A DNA stretch of 64,000 nt from Punctularia strigosozonata HHB-11173 SS5 (taxonomy: Eukaryota; Basidiomycota; Agaricomycetes; Corticiales; Punctulariaceae): positions 380,084 through 444,083 of the forward strand of contig NW_006767445.1 of assembly GCF_000264995.1 (NCBI RefSeq), in the 5' to 3' direction. Shown one piece after another: positions 6,671 to 14,125 of the stretch. The translations under genes were made by a program, and so were the position numbers. Below the pieces are notes generated by a model. It did not search any database, had not been told where the DNA came from, and was given only the letters and a program-made list of their open reading frames with translations. Within the stretch, counting starts at the first letter, position 1, and each line of letters begins with the position of its first letter.

Positions 6671-7522
6671 GGTGATAGCGGGAGGAGGAGGAGGAGGAGG
6701 ACGTGCGGCTTACCTCGGGGCGGAAGGGATATAAAGGAGTCAGGGATGTGGAGAAGAGGAAGGGGCGGGCGAGGCGTGGTTACCGCGTTGTAAATTGCCC
6801 TCCACAGCTTGGCGCCACACCTCCTGCCTCGACGGTCCTTCGGCCACTCATCGGGACCCTATACCGCTATAATATTCTCTACCGTATTTTCCTGAACGAC
6901 TGCTAGGCCGATTATGTCAAGCCTCCAATGAACTCGGACATCCAGACTGTGCGGGGCTCCGTCTGCTTTTCACGTTCATCTACCGCGTCTGAATCCGAGT
7001 CATTGGACAAGCGTTTCATATGAGTGTGGACTGCGCCGGTATCTCTGCTCGAACCCAGACGGAGAGGCCTTATCAGCGACTCGTTCCATGTTCTGACTGG
7101 CCAGGTAAAGGAACGCGGAAGGAACGCATCGGATTTGAGGAACGTGGATCTGCTGTTCGCAGCCTCTCTTGGCCCTTTCAGTCGTCGTCGCCTCCTCCGA
7201 CATTCGACATAGCCCACCGCCAGGCTATATCGATGGGCACGACCACATCGTCGTAGCAAGGAACAAAGGAGGAACAACACATCAAGCAGCCAGATGAAAC
7301 TTCTTGTCCCAGCGAACACGCGCCGGAGGACGACGTCGTGTACGCGTAAAACGCGGCAGGCCGGGTGCTTTCTCACCACGTCTCCTCTTCCTGCCCTACA
7401 ATTTCGAACCATCGATACGATGCGCCATTACGTGTCGGAGAGCAGGACGCAGAACTGGGGGCACGTTCGTGTCCCCGAGCGCTCGGCCTTTGCCGATCGC
7501 TGTTTCGTCGGCATTCTGTGCG
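6671..7522. other. Intergenic between the phosphatase and the retroelement
   Basis: Upstream region of the phosphatase gene, then about 600 bp of unassigned sequence. Overlapping short ORFs on both strands (largest 166 codons, minus, 6912-7412) show no motif and are probably chance. Confidence 0.45.
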
Positions 7523-7727
7523 ATCTATGGCTCTCACTAGGTTGCTTGTCACTGTAATTAAGTAGTCTGTCTTTACTGTGCATACAAAGATTACGGGCTG
7601 GTGCCCTATTACTCGATCCGGGCGTATGCTACCCGTGAGGGCGTGTGCTGAGTGCTGGTAGGTACGGGCGAATGCCCCCGAAGGGGGCGTTCCGGTCTGG
7701 GAAACCTGCGGGGTGTGTGAGCCGCGA
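7523..7727 (-). repeat. Split direct repeat B2 of the Ngaro-like element
   Basis: 205 bp matching 8809-9013 with one visible difference (GGGCGTATG here, GGGTGTATG there). It forms the distal end of the element. Confidence 0.85.
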
Positions 7728-7959
7728 GGGCGGGCAGGGTCAATCATGAGGCGTGGTGGGTGGGAACATCTTACCCAACCCTGAAGACCTCGCTTACACC
7801 CTGTGCTCGGTTCCCGGACCCCAAAAGGGACTTGCCAATGGGTTGCGCTCTGCCAAACGCTGGTTCTCTTTACATACAACTTTTTCTGTGCTAATCCTTT
7901 TTTGCTCTTGACCGCTCTCTCCTTCTGCCTCTTTCTTTGGGGAGACTGATCCGCGGTGG

Positions 7960-8038
7960 TGCCAGCACCGCGGTCCGCAGCCCTATAAGAGGACGGTGTT
8001 GGAAATTTTTCTTTCTTTCCCCCTCCTTTCTTTTAACC
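7960..8038 (+). promoter_or_regulatory. Promoter-like block opposing the retroelement genes
   Basis: On the plus strand a TATA-like CCCTATAAGAGG (about 7980-7991) lies some 50 bp before an ATG at 8039. It is followed by a pyrimidine-rich run (TTTTTCTTTCTTTCCCCCTC) that ends at that ATG. TATA plus CT-tract directly before the start is the classic layout of strong fungal promoters. It sits between repeats A2 and B2 and points against the element's own genes. Confidence 0.5.
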
Positions 8039-8239
8039 ATGTCTTCCCACTCTCGAGTCGCTCGTTCCTCTCCTCTGTACTGGCCTCTCCCCCCCGAGGG
8101 CCTTGTCATCCCTCCTGGTGAAGTGTTCTACGCCGAACATCTCTCGGCTCGTGTGGTGCCCCACTATATTCGTTTGGACGACCCTCGCTGTCGAGTTATG
8201 CATTATGATTGTGCGCCCCAGTGTTGTTTGACTTACTGA
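8039..8239 (+). CDS. Small opposite-strand ORF inside the retroelement
   Basis: 66 codons from an ATG placed right after a CT-rich tract. The product begins MSSHSRVARSSPLYWPLPPE and includes GEVFYAEHLSARVVPHYIRL. It resembles no family I know. The reading continues into GC-rich sequence with candidate splice signals, so the true product could be longer. It could be an accessory gene of the element, captured host sequence, or a non-coding transcript. Confidence 0.35.
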   Translation: MSSHSRVARSSPLYWPLPPEGLVIPPGEVFYAEHLSARVVPHYIRLDDPRCRVMHYDCAPQCCLTY

Positions 8240-8645
8240 GGCTGACTCTCTTGGTTCCTATAGTTGTCACGGGCGAGCCGTACGGTGGCCTGCGTCCGCT
8301 GCGGGCCCTTTATCCTCTCCCCGCTCTCCCCGGTGCCGGGGAACCGGCGCTATCAGAGCCTCCCGCGCGCTCTACTACCGGCCCGGGGCTCGCGGGTGTC
8401 ATTTGTGTCTGCCCGGACCTTCCCGGGCTGACCTATTACTGGCGCCTGCTGTGTCGTTACCTGGGCATTCGAATCCCGTGCTCGGGCTGCTCTTTGTTTT
8501 GCCACGTGTGCCCGTGCTGCCGTCACACGTGACTGTGTGCGTCCTTATCTTTTGTTGTCGGCCGTTGCGCGTGCTGACTACCGATGTTTGCGGCAGGGTT
8601 CTGACCATTGTGCTCTGCGCGGGTCTAGCTGGGTGGGTGGGTCGG

Positions 8646-8812
8646 CAAATTTGCGTTACGGCGGCTCTCGTGAGCTCGCCAAGTGATGGAAAACCTATGG
8701 CGCGCGATGCGGGTGGCGAAGAAAGGATTGCACCGCCACCGCAACGCACGCTCTCCATAGACTCAGTTCTTGCGTCTCGCTCGTTCCTCCCGTCGCCTCA
8801 GAACAACTATCT
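8646..8812 (-). repeat. Split direct repeat A2 of the Ngaro-like element
   Basis: 167 bp matching 13959-14125. It overlaps B1 by 4 bp (ATCT at 8809-8812), so A and B abut as expected for the internal junction of split direct repeats. Confidence 0.85.
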
Positions 8813-9013
8813 ATGGCTCTCACTAGGTTGCTTGTCACTGTAATTAAGTAGTCTGTCTTTACTGTGCATACAAAGATTACGGGCTGGTGCCCTATTACTC
8901 GATCCGGGTGTATGCTACCCGTGAGGGCGTGTGCTGAGTGCTGGTAGGTACGGGCGAATGCCCCCGAAGGGGGCGTTCCGGTCTGGGAAACCTGCGGGGT
9001 GTGTGAGCCGCGA
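8809..9013 (-). repeat. Split direct repeat B1 of the Ngaro-like element
   Basis: 205 bp matching 7523-7727, sited directly after the recombinase reading frame. Confidence 0.85.
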
Positions 9014-9086
9014 AACCCACTGTGGTAGGAGTGCTGCGACGCGACGCGCGAGCGACCCCCGCTGGAAAAGGAGCTGTGCTCACCCG

Positions 9087-10150
9087 TCACCGAACCGGAG
9101 GCATGGCATACCGTACGAACTCGGCTTGAAGTGCCGGTCTTGCTTGCATGTAGGGCGCCAAGATCTCCGCGTGCTTCCGTAGGTACCCTAGGAAGGCCTC
9201 GCTTCCCCAACGCCCTTTGGTCTTTACGACCTCAAAGGGAACACCTCGTAGGAGGTACTCGAGGGTTCCGCCGATTCGGATCCCGTGCCCTTGGAGAGGT
9301 GCTCTGCCCGCAGCCTCGCAGGCGGAGCGAATGCGCCCTAGAAATGCCTTCCTGGTCAAAGGCCATACTTGCCCGTTGCGCGACCGGTATGCGAAAACGT
9401 GCTCGCCTTCGCCGACGTCATTGACCTGGAGGTGGTGTGCCAGCGCGGCTACGGGGTCCGTCGGTCCGTCTTGCTGTGCCCAGTGGATCTGTTCGCCGTT
9501 GTGCGAGCACTTCGTCCGGGGCAGGTTCAGGGTCTGCTGGCGCAACATGTTCCGGTCTTCGGCACTCCCGAGGTCGGATCGTCTGGGGTGCGCGGTCGGC
9601 TTGTAGTCCTTTCGGTTGGGTACTGTGAGCTCTCCTACCCGCGCGCACGCATAGAATGCGACTGTCAAGCAGGCATACACCGCGGCGTCATAACCCTGTT
9701 GAAGGTCTAGCTGCTCGCGGATGGCGCAGATGATGTCGATTGTGTAGGGCTCGCGCTTCTTTCGTTTCGAAGCGGCCGGTGTCAGGCGAACCGAGGCCCG
9801 CAGCATGGACTGCATGGCTGCGTCGTCCATATCCCAGGCCACGCCGTGGATGAGGTGCCACGCGCGGACGCCATAGAAGTAGTTCACGATGGTGGATCCC
9901 GCGTATATGCCTGCCAGTGCGGCGAGGAAGGCCAGCATGAGGGTGGCCGACGCTGGCGCTCGCTGATCTTCCGCTAGCTGGCGCTCATCGCAAAATGCAT
10001 GGAAAGCGACTAGGCCCGCGCCGTAGGTCTCGGCAGTCGACGGCGCCAGTGCTTGTGCCATTACCTCCCGCACTCGGTCGAGGTCTCTTTGCTCCAAGCC
10101 GGTTGGCTCGCCGTTACTGTCGAATCTGGTCCGTCCTCCTGCGGGTATCC
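9087..10150 (-). mobile_element. Tyrosine recombinase region of the Ngaro-like element
   Basis: The C-terminal part of a long open frame gives a tyrosine recombinase of about 340 residues. It has an N-terminal SAM-like domain (LAPSTAETYGAGLVAFHAFC), the first catalytic Arg in ACARVGELT, the H-x-x-R box HGIRIGG, and a closing Tyr in FLGYLRKH after GRWGSEA. This enzyme inserts the circular cDNA by recombination instead of a retroviral integrase. It sits at the 3' end of the coding region, directly before repeat B1. Confidence 0.85.
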
Positions 10151-10236
10151 AACGCGTTAGTCGCTGTCCTGATGGGCACGCCGGACGGACGCTGGCCTGT
10201 GTCGAGGTTTGCGCCCCGGCTGGAGTCGTGACTTCT

Positions 10237-12640
10237 CTACCAATCGGCGAAGTTTGCCGCGGCGAACTGCTCGTTACGCCATTCGAGATCTGCCTGCGCA
10301 ACCGAGTTGCGCCTGATGTCGATGCTGCCCCAGAGCTTTGGGAGCGGTTCCTTTGCCGCGCCGCTGCGCTGGGCTTCGATTTCGCGCTGCGTGAAGGGTT
10401 CTGTGCAATCGATGATGAGACCCTCGAGGGCCTCAGGTATGGGTATAGGGGGGAGTAGTTGGCTGAAAGCCGGGTAGACACCTCTCGATGGTCCGTCCGC
10501 GGGATTGTTAGCGCTGGTGACGTACCTTGTGTGAAAGGTAAGTCGAGCATCGTTGGCCGCAGTGTGTATTCGCTTGAAGACGGTGTTGATATGCCGGTTG
10601 CGGCTTCGACCGTTCCACCAGCCCTCGACGACCCCTCGGTTGTCGCCGTGCACCTTGACGTGCTTGGCCTCGGCGTCGTCGAGTTTGATGATGGTGCGAA
10701 CGAGGAGCTCGAACCCGACTGCTTCTGCCCAGCCGATCTCCCGGCCGCCGGCGTCCCATCCTGGGAGGAGCCTCCAGGCGCGCCAACGGCCTCTGACCAC
10801 CACTCCGATGCCCACGCTGGAGCTCGCGTCGGAATAACCTCCGGAGTCCAGTAGTTCGACGGGACCTGGTATGCGGCGGCTGAGGGTGGGGCGCTGGAGG
10901 GTGTTTGTCCACCACTCGAGAGCAGCCATAGTACCCTTGGGTGGGGTACGTGGCTGGAAAGGACGGTCACCGAAAACGCCGAGCAAGGCCTCCAGTTCGG
11001 TGAGGTAGGCCCGTCCTTCTGGTACGACCAAAGAGGCGTGCAGAAGCTTGCCGTAGAGCTTCTGCACATCGTCCAAGGCGTGGGTCCGTCGCACGCTCCA
11101 ATCGCGAATGGCCTGCACGTACTTGAGTCGCTTCTTCTCGCCCAGCGCAACAGTCGCTGACTTGAGGTCCCAGTCGAGCCCTGTAAACGGCGCTGAGTCT
11201 GCAAATGGGTGGTCCTTGTCGAGTCCCCAAGGCCAACCCAGCTCGTCAGATATGCGGTCGACGTCACACATTGCGTAACAGAATTCCGCGTCCGCCGGCG
11301 AGTGCTCGGACGCTTGCGCGAGGTCCTGGAGCGGGAACGCCATATCGTCGTCGAACTCTTCAATCCGACCATCGGGGATTTCGGCGCCTCCGTACCATAG
11401 ACGACTCCGGTCATGACGTGCACCGCCGCTCGCTGCGATGCTGCGTCTCCAGCCCTCCCGTCGGAGGTTGTATTCCTCCAGGAACTCCCGTCGGATCCGC
11501 GAGAACAGGAAATCGTCCACCCACTTCGATGCAGGGCCGATGCCGTTGGCCCTTGCGATGTCGGCAAATGTGTCTGCTGCTGCGCCGAAGATACCGCAGC
11601 CGGAGCGTAAACCGAAACAGTCGCACGTATCGACCGCGAACTCGTCGCCTTCGCTGACTCGCACCACCAAACCCGACCATTGCTCTGGTTTGATCGGGAT
11701 CGTTCGGTATGCCTCCGCGACATCCCGGCACGCGATCTGCGACCCTGGAGGGAGACGAGCCAGCGACAGCGCGACGGCGGTGAAAGTACCCCATGTGCAT
11801 GGGTATAGCGTAGCGTCGATGGCGGCATTGATGGACGTGATGCCCTCCCGGGGATGTCATGGGAAAGAGAGGTTCTGGATGAGGCGAAACTTCGCCGGGT
11901 TGTTGGGCTTCGGGATGATGGACATCGGCGACGTCTGGAAAGGGCCCAATACGCCCTCGATGACGGCCTTCGTGAACGGGCCGAGGTACCTGCCTTTCTC
12001 GAGTTCTTTCTGTACACTGCGCTGAAACTCTGCCTGCTGATTGGAGATGGATACATGATTAGGTGGGGTAAAAGTAAGGACAGGGGGGCGGATGCCTGCA
12101 TCAAAACCGTGGCGGATGGAATCTGTGACGTCTGGGTATTTGCGCTGGAGGCCGTGTGCCTGGAGCTGATGGCGCCAAGCGTCTGGCCGCAGCGGTGTGA
12201 GCGCGCTACTGGCCCTCTGCAAGAGCGCAGTCGCGAGCGCCGTGGCTGGATTTTCCGCACCCAGAGCAGGTGTGCCGGTATGCGTCGGTGTGCGAGTGAC
12301 GCTTGCACCCGTGGACCTGGAAGTCGATGCAGAGTACCTTGTTGCTCGGGTCGACGAGCTGCCCTCTTCCGTCTCGCGAAGCATACACCTTGGTCTTTCC
12401 GTCCCAGAGGAGTTGCGCTCTGCACGTTCGCACGTCGTGCGGGTGACGCCCGAGGCAGAGGGCACATGGTGTACGGGCGTTGACACCGGTTCCCTGGCAA
12501 AAAACCTGCTGTCGCCCGCTGCGATCCCTTTCGCCTCCGTTGCGCTCCCCTCCTCCCGTCGGGTATGGGGCCGCCTGTTGCGAACCGCGCCTCCTCTCGG
12601 GCCGATCTGGCCCGCCTGCAGAGACGGGAGCGGCTCTCCT
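10237..12640 (-). mobile_element. Zinc knuckle, reverse transcriptase and RNase H region of the Ngaro-like element
   Basis: Reading from 12640 downward: a CCHC knuckle (CSGCGKSSHGARDC), reverse transcriptase finger motifs (TSPMSIIPKPNNPAKFRLIQ), the catalytic WVDDF box that corresponds to YxDD, and an RNase H with YSDASSS, GWAEAVGFE and VHGDNRGV carrying the acidic residues. The fold order matches DIRS-order elements. RT and recombinase occupy different overlapping frames, as is common in this order. I make no statement on individual lesions. Confidence 0.8.
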
Positions 12641-12970
12641 CATGCTGTGGCATGCCGATTGCGGAACGTCGTGTGACGATTCGGAGAGCGGCGCGTTGGA
12701 TTTGCGTGCGATCGTTCGTCCCCGTCAGTGGGCAGGGGTGACGCAGAGGTACGATAGTGATCGCCCGGATGATGGGGACGTCCGCATTGGCGTGACGCCC
12801 GGTGCGCGACGATGATCGGGTTTCGGGAGTTGCCCAGTTGTTGACGCGAGTGAAGCGCGCGTTGCATAGTGATGCGGTTCCGTATATGCGTGCGCGATCG
12901 TGTTGCGGATTGCGAATCGGATGCGGAGGAGGTGGGGGTGGGGGGGGTTTTATGGCGGAAGGGATTGCTG

Positions 12971-13873
12971 TTAGCGTGCTGTGTTTCTAAAGTGGGGGAA
13001 AAAGGGAAGGACATACGCGTTGTTGATGCTGCTGACTTGCGTGTTGAGGTATCGCTGCGTTATGCGCTGCAGCCGGTCGTTGTTGAAGACCGAAGGGTCG
13101 AAAACCTCGGCGGGATTGCGATCGTATCGGAAATGCCAGAGCTGACGGACCTCCTCCTGGTAGAGGAGGAGGCAGGGGTCGCCGTGCGGGCCCTCATAAC
13201 GGCTTGGGTGGTTGTCGATCGCAAAGAAGAAATCGACGAAATCTTGCACGATGTTCTTGGGCCATCCGACCTTGGCCATGTCCTCGAGTAGGCCCGTTTT
13301 GGCGATGGAGAGTTCCCTCCACGTGAGATCTCTGTCGGGCACGCAAAACCGCGCGAGCCGATTTGGTGCCGATTGCCGCAGGGCGCCCCCCTCGCCTTCC
13401 CAGGCCACGATTAGAACTTCGTCGCTGGTCCTGCAGGCGTCTTCTGCGGCCCTGCGCCGTCCCTCGACTCCGAAGTACCACAGTTCGACGTACTGATATG
13501 CCTTGAGCTTTTTCAGAGCCTTGATGTCCGTGAGGGGGGCGGATTCCTGGCCGACCATATGACCTTTGGTGTACGTCGGTATCTTTGGTCGGTTCTTCGC
13601 GGCCTCCCTCTCTTCTTCGGCTTTCTCCGTCGCCTCGCGGTCCAACCTTTCCTGTTCCGCAAGCTGCGCGGCTTCCTGGTCCGCCGCTATCTGCCGATCC
13701 CACGCCGCCTTCTCCAGATTGATGTCGGCGGTCCACGCGTCGAGCAGCGTTTGCGCCGCCTGTTCGTCCGTTAGGCCGTCTTGATTCACCAGGGACCGCC
13801 TGCATGCTGCGAAGGCTGCTCCGGCGAAATTGGGGGCGACCTGTTCGTGAGGGTTGGCTGTAATACGTGGCAT
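12971..13873 (-). mobile_element. Gag-like ORF of the Ngaro-like element
   Basis: 300-codon open frame, first in the element. A central Glu/Ala/Lys-rich block (residues about 55-95: AAWDRQIAADQEAAQLAEQE and following) is predicted coiled coil. It is followed by LKKLKAYQYVELWYFGVEGR and a conserved-looking C-terminal region. Position and composition suggest a structural (gag-like) protein; no known domain was recognised. Confidence 0.6.
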
Positions 13874-13958
13874 TATCTTCTGCAGATACTGAAGGTTATC
13901 AGCGATTGTTGATTATGGTTCCGAATGATTATGGGGAATAAAATATATTTCTTTGCTC

Positions 13959-14125
13959 CAAATTTGCGTTACGGCGGCTCTCGTGAGCTCGCCAAGTGAT
14001 GGAAAACCTATGGCGCGCGATGCGGGTGGCGAAGAAAGGATTGCACCGCCACCGCAACGCACGCTCTCCATAGACTCAGTTCTTGCGTCTCGCTCGTTCC
14101 TCCCGTCGCCTCAGAACAACTATCT
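13959..14125 (-). repeat. Split direct repeat A1 of the Ngaro-like element
   Basis: 167 bp matching 8646-8812. It forms the proximal end of the element, just upstream of the gag-like ORF. Confidence 0.85.

What the first reader, a model, noticed from the sequence alone, without database searches (positions are those of the whole stretch)
7523..14125. Ngaro-type retroelement with intact split direct repeats
Both A copies (167 bp) look identical and the B copies (205 bp) differ at one visible site. B1 and A2 share 4 bp at their junction (8809-8812). Near-identity of repeats suggests a recent insertion by tyrosine recombination. The zinc knuckle, RT, RNase H and recombinase motifs are all legible.
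Basis: partly seen in the sequence, partly recalled or inferred. Interest (0 to 1): 0.7.

Follow-up and report, generated by a model that had tools for sequence, protein, structure and literature searches.

The report
Jumping gene with a backwards gene

Summary
It is a Ngaro retrotransposon, with two corrections. (1) The RT frame has an in-frame stop at 11857-11859, absent from 2 of 3 full-length relatives; the third has its own. (2) A2 and B2 lie 918 bp apart, against 97-144 bp in 4 elements of other lineages measured here. That spacer holds a reverse-strand gene (exons 8039-8210 and 8264-8532, + strand; 146 aa; inferred 53-nt intron; TATAAG 55 bp before the ATG). It is open in the C2 and C4 relatives (153 aa, intron at the same place), frameshifted in C15, and present in a diverged solo A-spacer-B remnant; it was not found at 4 other loci of the clade. 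Differences concentrate at third codon positions (66 of 115; 33 of 44) and dN/dS is 0.11-0.20, near RT-RNaseH. No Pfam, NCBIfam or PDB match exceeds a cut-off. I read it as an accessory protein, probably a regulator; expression and function are untested.

The parts
13959..14125 (-). A1, left terminal repeat of the element (the element reads on the minus strand)
   Evidence: identical to A2 over 167 bp
12974..13873 (-). gag-like open frame (300 codons)
   Evidence: no stop; 74-75% aa identity to L001, L002 and L003; dN/dS 0.12-0.14 against them
12209..12724 (-). frame with a CCHC zinc knuckle (C-x2-C-x4-H-x4-C), probably joined to gag by splicing (inferred)
   Evidence: 70-71% identity to L001, L002 and L003
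10240..12639 (-). RT-RNase H frame, with one in-frame stop codon at 11857-11859
9087..10280 (-). tyrosine recombinase (YR), in another frame than RT-RNase H; the upstream limit given is that of the search query, the frame is open further
   Evidence: R, HxxR, W and Y invariant in the 11 copies aligned, of 15 loci held; profile matches Cre/Tre chains
8809..9013 (-). B1
   Evidence: 1 difference in 205 to B2
8646..8812 (-). A2, overlapping B1 by 4 bp (crossover core AGAT)
7728..8645 (.). A2-B2 spacer, 918 bp
   Evidence: 891, 893 and 1316 bp (the last with 598 N) in 3 relatives against 97-144 bp in 4 elements of other lineages of this genome
7984..7989 (+). TATAAG, putative TATA box of the reverse-strand gene
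   Evidence: present 53-55 bp before the ATG in 4 of 4 copies
8039..8210 (+). exon 1 of the reverse-strand accessory gene
   Evidence: 172 nt in window, C2 and C4 without gaps, 81-82% nt identity of the window to both
8211..8263 (+). inferred 53-nt intron (GTGCGC...CTATAG)
   Evidence: same place and phase as the GTGAGT...TTAG introns of 48 and 47 nt in C2 and C4
8264..8532 (+). exon 2 of the reverse-strand accessory gene, Cys/His-rich C-terminus, stop included
   Evidence: 64-67% aa identity to relatives; 8 Cys and 2 His of the tail invariant in 4 of 4 copies; frame shifted upstream of the tail in C15
7523..7727 (-). B2, right terminal repeat
7670..7692 (.). hairpin with a 10-bp stem inside B2 (its copy in B1 at 8956-8978), in the most conserved block of B
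   Evidence: alignment of 7 B-type sequences from this genome; stem kept with other letters in C12, imperfect in C15 and C14; no Rfam match

Best explanation
A Ngaro (YR) retrotransposon that inserted fairly recently. Inferred from the known cycle of such elements (recalled): its RNA is copied to cDNA using B1A2 to rebuild both ends, a circle is formed, and the YR joins the A/B junction to a short match in the target (here up to AGAT) without a target-site duplication. This family carries in its enlarged A2-B2 spacer a two-exon gene on the opposite strand with what looks like its own promoter. I think it encodes a small accessory protein that regulates the element (transcription, or escape from silencing). 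Shown: repeat anatomy, B1/A2 junctions, conservation of and purifying selection on the reverse-strand reading frame, shared intron place and TATAAG. Inferred: transcription, splicing, translation, role.
For: Repeat anatomy and junctions (B1 and A2 abut or overlap by 0-4 bp in 8 of 8 elements measured). YR profile matches Cre/Tre: 17 of the 18 PDB sequences listed, E 0.006-0.09. Reverse-strand gene found by protein search at C13 (window), C2, C4, C15 and C12 for exon 1, and at C13, C2, C4 and C15 for exon 2. Differences by codon position 28/21/66 (window-C2), 31/22/66 (window-C4), 8/3/33 (C2-C4); the three sense frames over the same columns hold 2-12 stops each. dN/dS 0.18, 0.20, 0.11, against 0.03-0.14 for gag and 0.10-0.15 for RT-RNaseH; dS 0.98-0.99 between window and C2/C4, near that of gag (1.10-1.22 for the same pairs), so the gene seems to have travelled with the element. 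Introns of 53, 48, 47 and 46 nt at the same place in window, C2, C4 and C12. TATAAG in 4 of 4.
Against: No transcript data. All copies compared come from one genome, and the three pairwise tests are not independent: C2 and C4 are close kin. The C15 copy has a 1-nt insertion in exon 2 that shifts the frame upstream of the tail, besides 598 N. The gene was not found at 4 of the 8 loci of the window clade (C11, C14, C21, C2:787450); no complete repeats were found there, so a lost right end or a family without the gene cannot be told apart. Exon 2 is less constrained than exon 1 (dN/dS 0.15-0.24 against 0.03-0.13) and its nt identity (67-69%) is little above that of the flanking spacer (52-65%). 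The window copy's donor GTGCGC departs from the GTGAGT of the other three; unspliced, the ATG frame would end after 67 codons. No Pfam, NCBIfam or PDB match over a cut-off. The fold of exon 2 alone is of low confidence (pLDDT 57). The C12 remnant lacks the Cys/His tail in frame. RT was not recognised by Pfam and rests on motifs. 2 of the 4 full-length copies have an RT stop.
Confidence: 0.76

Rival explanations
1. The reverse-strand gene is a host gene picked up as passive cargo and kept for no role in the element.
For: It has its own TATAAG and intron, like a host gene.
Against: No copy outside Ngaro right ends was found in this genome: 5 of 5 exon-1 matches lie in an element or in the C12 solo A-spacer-B remnant. 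Constraint and dS resemble those of gag and RT-RNaseH; a passive cargo should decay, as the C15 copy does.
Confidence: 0.15
2. The reverse strand makes a functional non-coding antisense RNA; the open frame is incidental.
For: TATAAG conserved in 4 of 4; an antisense transcript running on into A2/B1 could make double-stranded RNA (inference); the C15 frame is shifted.
Against: Third-position bias and dN/dS 0.11-0.20; exon lengths of window, C2 and C4 (172/172/172 and 269/290/290) differ by multiples of three; the intron is less conserved than exon 1.
Confidence: 0.1
3. An ordinary Ngaro in which the spacer is long but without function, and the conservation is chance or sense-strand constraint.
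For: Long 3' regions are known in other retroelements (PMC11963269, passages); only four related copies plus one remnant, one of them frameshifted.
Against: Sense frames over the same columns contain 2-12 stops each; third-position bias at p 2e-8 to 6e-7; exon 1 is 81-82% identical between window and C2/C4 against 52-65% in flanking spacer, though exon 2 is only 67-69%.
Confidence: 0.06

Closest known systems
Ngaro retrotransposons of fungi (Muszewska et al. 2013, PMC3783388: parts 1-3 of 5 of the text read)
   Same: A-pol-B-A-B repeats, RT, RNase H and YR without methyltransferase, YR allowed in another frame than RT-RNaseH, found in Basidiomycota
   Different: No reverse-strand gene in the parts read, and none of the terms antisense, opposite strand, complementary strand, additional ORF or intron occurs in its main text; the A2-B2 gap here is 918 bp
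Ngaro elements of Cafeteria (PMC8547959, passages), with solo AB repeats
   Same: A1-[ORFs]-B1A2B2 plan; isolated AB repeats, as the C12 locus here appears to be
   Different: ORFs named in the passages seen are Gag-like, RT-RH and YR; A2B2 written together; no antisense gene in the passages seen
Amphibian Ngaro-like elements with an SGNH hydrolase ORF after YR (PMC9210276, passages)
   Same: An extra gene of unproven role near the 3' end of a Ngaro
   Different: That ORF is a hydrolase placed after YR; the one here is on the reverse strand, apparently spliced, between A2 and B2, without a hydrolase match
Retand and Grande plant LTR retrotransposons with antisense ORFs between pol and 3' LTR (PMC11963269, abstract and passages)
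   Same: Conserved reverse-strand accessory gene at the 3' end, role unknown, a regulatory role suggested by the author
   Different: LTR retrotransposons; mostly a TRP28 domain; no sequence relation shown
HTLV antisense genes (named in the PMC11963269 passages; HBZ itself recalled)
   Same: Antisense gene of a retroelement
   Different: A virus; analogy only

Membership tests
Ngaro | Split direct repeats A1-ORFs-B1A2-B2 | tested here: met
   same order in the 8 of 15 loci for which a complete set was measured
Ngaro | Tyrosine recombinase | tested here: met
   catalytic R, HxxR, W, Y invariant in 11 of 11 aligned, of 15 loci held (residue roles recalled); Cre/Tre matches at E 0.006-0.09; Pfam Phage_integrase at E 0.02, below cut-off
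Ngaro | Reverse transcriptase and RNase H | tested here: inconclusive
   WVDD and RNase H acidic residues invariant in 6 of 6 aligned (motif names recalled); no RVT_1 match in Pfam, only RNase H-like RVT_3 below cut-off in 2 of 4 diverged elements scanned; the A4 profile gave no RT chain in the PDB
Ngaro | No DIRS-type methyltransferase, no aspartic protease or DDE integrase | tested here: met
   no such Pfam family among the pieces scanned
Ngaro | gag with zinc knuckle (some members) | tested here: inconclusive
   CCHC pattern present; zf-CCHC_5 in L001 only at E 0.06, below cut-off
Ngaro | Integration without target-site duplication | tested here: inconclusive
   flanks of 8 elements show no duplicated target beyond the 0-4 bp shared core, read by eye; no empty site in another strain could be examined
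DIRS (DIRS1-like) | Methyltransferase domain and inverted terminal repeats | tested here: not met
   no methyltransferase match; longest inverted repeat found 22 nt

The most novel reading that the evidence does not exclude
YR elements, beside LTR retrotransposons and retroviruses, have independently evolved a spliced antisense accessory gene at their 3' end. Because it sits between A2 and B2 it survives A1 x A2 deletion, so solo A-spacer-B remnants stay as free-standing copies of the regulator, able to act on the element from elsewhere in the genome.
Probability: 0.35. Interest if true: 0.7.

Novelty: new variant of a known kind. Interest (0 to 1): 0.5.

Why it matters
YR retrotransposons are poorly known experimentally (recalled). 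A conserved antisense protein would be a handle on how they are regulated, a case of convergence with Retand elements and HTLV, and a marker for a sublineage in white-rot fungi. Its position inside the solo A-spacer-B unit predicts that the gene outlives the element, which can be tested by sequence alone in other genomes.

Tried and rejected
Considered and rejected: plain Ngaro with nothing new (the spacer gene is constrained); a known structured RNA in the spacer or B (no Rfam match up to E 1 over 7400-9200); identification of the protein by Pfam, NCBIfam or PDB sequences (nothing over a cut-off; VP16-like at E 0.12 and BOW99_gp33 at E 0.06 judged chance; PHROGs and PADLOC not scanned); fold of exon 2 (low confidence, not searched further). 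Matches (ubiquitin, isatin hydrolase, trichodiene synthase and others) were set aside as chance. In one search the folding step picked the intended stretch in 2 of 7 B sequences only (window and C12); the other five hairpins are judged from the alignment by eye.

Literature: searched only open-licence papers; in the listings, abstracts and passages seen I found no reverse-strand gene in a Ngaro. [quoted passage not shown]

Not done: tree of the element's lineage against published Ngaro groups (no reference sequences held); other fungal genomes; a search for the empty site in other strains.

Full report
What was checked. The element lies on the minus strand, 14125 down to 7523, 6,603 bp. The two A copies (13959-14125, 8646-8812) are identical over 167 bp; the two B copies (8809-9013, 7523-7727) differ once in 205 bp, at 8909 against 7623; B1 and A2 share 4 bp. 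One difference in 372 paired sites fits a recent insertion, if repeats are identical at insertion as the accepted model of YR retrotransposons has it (recalled); gene conversion could mimic this. The related full-length copies show 0, 0 and 3 differences in 356 (C2, C4, C15).

Coding part. Minus-strand frames: gag 13873-12974; CCHC knuckle 12724-12209; RT-RNase H 12639-10240; YR to 9087 in another frame. The YR has R, HxxR, W and Y invariant in the 11 copies I aligned, of 15 loci held, and its profile finds Cre or Tre in 17 of the 18 PDB sequences listed, best E 0.006. RT-RNase H rests on motifs (WVDD and acidic RNase H residues, invariant in 6 of 6 aligned); Pfam did not recognise RT in this clade. 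The RT frame of the window copy has one in-frame stop at 11857-11859. Of the 3 full-length relatives, C2 and C4 have none over the matching stretch and C15 has one of its own, about three codons further on. 'Intact' is therefore true of the repeats only.

Relatives in the genome. A protein search with the YR gave 34 matches, a lower bound by the tool's own statement: 9 rows, 8 loci including the window, at 56% identity or more, and 25 rows at 25-46%. I fetched 14 of these loci besides the window: 7 of the clade and 7 others. Complete split repeats were measured in 8 elements, the window included: B1 and A2 abut or overlap by 0-4 bp in 8 of 8. The A2-B2 spacer is 918, 893, 891 and 1316 bp (the last with 598 N) in the window, C2, C4 and C15, and 142, 144, 106 and 97 bp in the 4 others. 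Of the remaining 7 loci, L009, L010 and L013 show one repeat pair, presumably B, 243-273 bp apart, and L004-L007 show no complete set.

The reverse-strand gene. Within the enlarged spacer, on the + strand, an ATG at 8039 opens a frame to 8210; a 53-nt stretch GTGCGC...CTATAG follows; the frame continues 8264-8532 to a stop (146 aa). C2 and C4 have the same gene (153 aa) with 48- and 47-nt GTGAGT...TTAG introns at the same place. C15 shows the start of exon 1 open up to its run of N; in its exon 2 a 1-nt insertion shifts the frame between the Leu/Pro-rich part and the Cys/His tail, so that copy looks broken there, as in RT. TATAAG lies 53-55 bp before the ATG in 4 of 4. Third positions carry 66 of 115 (window-C2), 66 of 119 (window-C4) and 33 of 44 (C2-C4) differences, p 1e-7, 6e-7 and 2e-8 against one third; sense frames over the same columns hold 2-12 stops each; exon 1 is 81-82% identical between window and C2/C4, exon 2 67-69%, the intron 59-63%, neighbouring spacer 52-65%. 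dN/dS is 0.18, 0.20 and 0.11 over the whole frame; exon 1 alone 0.10, 0.13, 0.03; exon 2 alone 0.24, 0.24, 0.15; against gag 0.03-0.14, RT-RNaseH 0.10-0.15, YR 0.05-0.10. The pairs share history and are not independent, but window-C2 and C2-C4 cover largely separate stretches of it and both show the signal.

Where it is absent. Protein searches found exon 1 at C13, C2, C4, C15 and C12 and exon 2 at the first four. At the other four loci of the window clade (C11, C14, C21, C2:787450) no match was found. No A2, spacer or B2 match was found at C11, and no complete repeats at the other three, so loss of the right end and a family without the gene cannot be told apart.

A fifth copy. At C12 (L017 4898-5348) exon 1 matches at 48% identity, with a 46-nt GTGAGT...CGCAG intron at the same place and an open exon 2. 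It is flanked on one side by an A-like stretch (79% over 82 columns) and on the other by a B-like stretch (local score 40 against a maximum of 17 in 500 mononucleotide shuffles). No gag, RT or YR match was found in the 9.9 kb fetched. This is what recombination between A1 and A2 would leave, like the solo AB repeats reported in Cafeteria (PMC8547959, passages). Against my reading: the Cys/His-rich tail seen in the other copies is not in frame there.

What the protein might do. Its C-terminus has 8 Cys and 2 His invariant in 4 of 4 copies, which suggests metal or nucleic-acid binding, but no Pfam or NCBIfam family or PDB sequence matches over a cut-off and the fold of exon 2 alone is poor. I favour a regulator of the element (about 0.45), then a suppressor of host silencing (about 0.2), then cargo (about 0.15); these are judgements. 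Antisense accessory genes between pol and the 3' LTR in Retand and Grande, and those of HTLV, are the closest parallels (PMC11963269, abstract and passages).

Host. Probably an agaricomycete near the white-rot Polyporales: 11 matches to the class-II peroxidase extension family; one of these peroxidases is closest in the PDB to manganese peroxidase 1mnp (that this is from Phanerochaete chrysosporium is recalled) and is not identical to it.

Known or new. Ngaro elements in Basidiomycota are known (PMC3783388, parts 1-3 of 5 read). In the searches I found no report of a reverse-strand gene in a Ngaro among what was listed or read; the library lacks the main subscription papers and Repbase. I call it a new variant of a known kind.

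Noticed in passing
L017 4330-5660 (C12): Apparent solo A-spacer-B remnant of a diverged Ngaro family that still carries the reverse-strand gene; followed by frames resembling an L1-like retrotransposon (by eye).
   Followed up: partly
window 7664-7765 and 8950-9013: Most conserved block of the B repeat and adjoining spacer (about 90% to C4 and C15), with a hairpin whose stem is kept with different letters in the C12 remnant; imperfect in C15 and C14; no Rfam family.
   Followed up: partly
window 11857-11859; L003 3095-3097: Two of four full-length copies have separate in-frame RT stops about three codons apart; chance, a decay hot spot or recoding not resolved.
   Followed up: partly
own genome: 25 further YR matches at 25-46% identity, several other Ngaro lineages; the 4 with complete repeats measured have 0-1 repeat differences, so several lineages look recently active.
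   Followed up: partly
L004 1988-3749: The C11 copy is split in RT by about 1.7 kb holding tandem-like repeats, and no A2, spacer or B2 match was found at its right end.
   Followed up: no
L003 6631-7228: 598 N inside the A2-B2 spacer of the C15 copy, hiding the middle of the reverse-strand gene.
   Followed up: no
L013 1189-1949: Direct repeats of about 180 bp period near another Ngaro.
   Followed up: no
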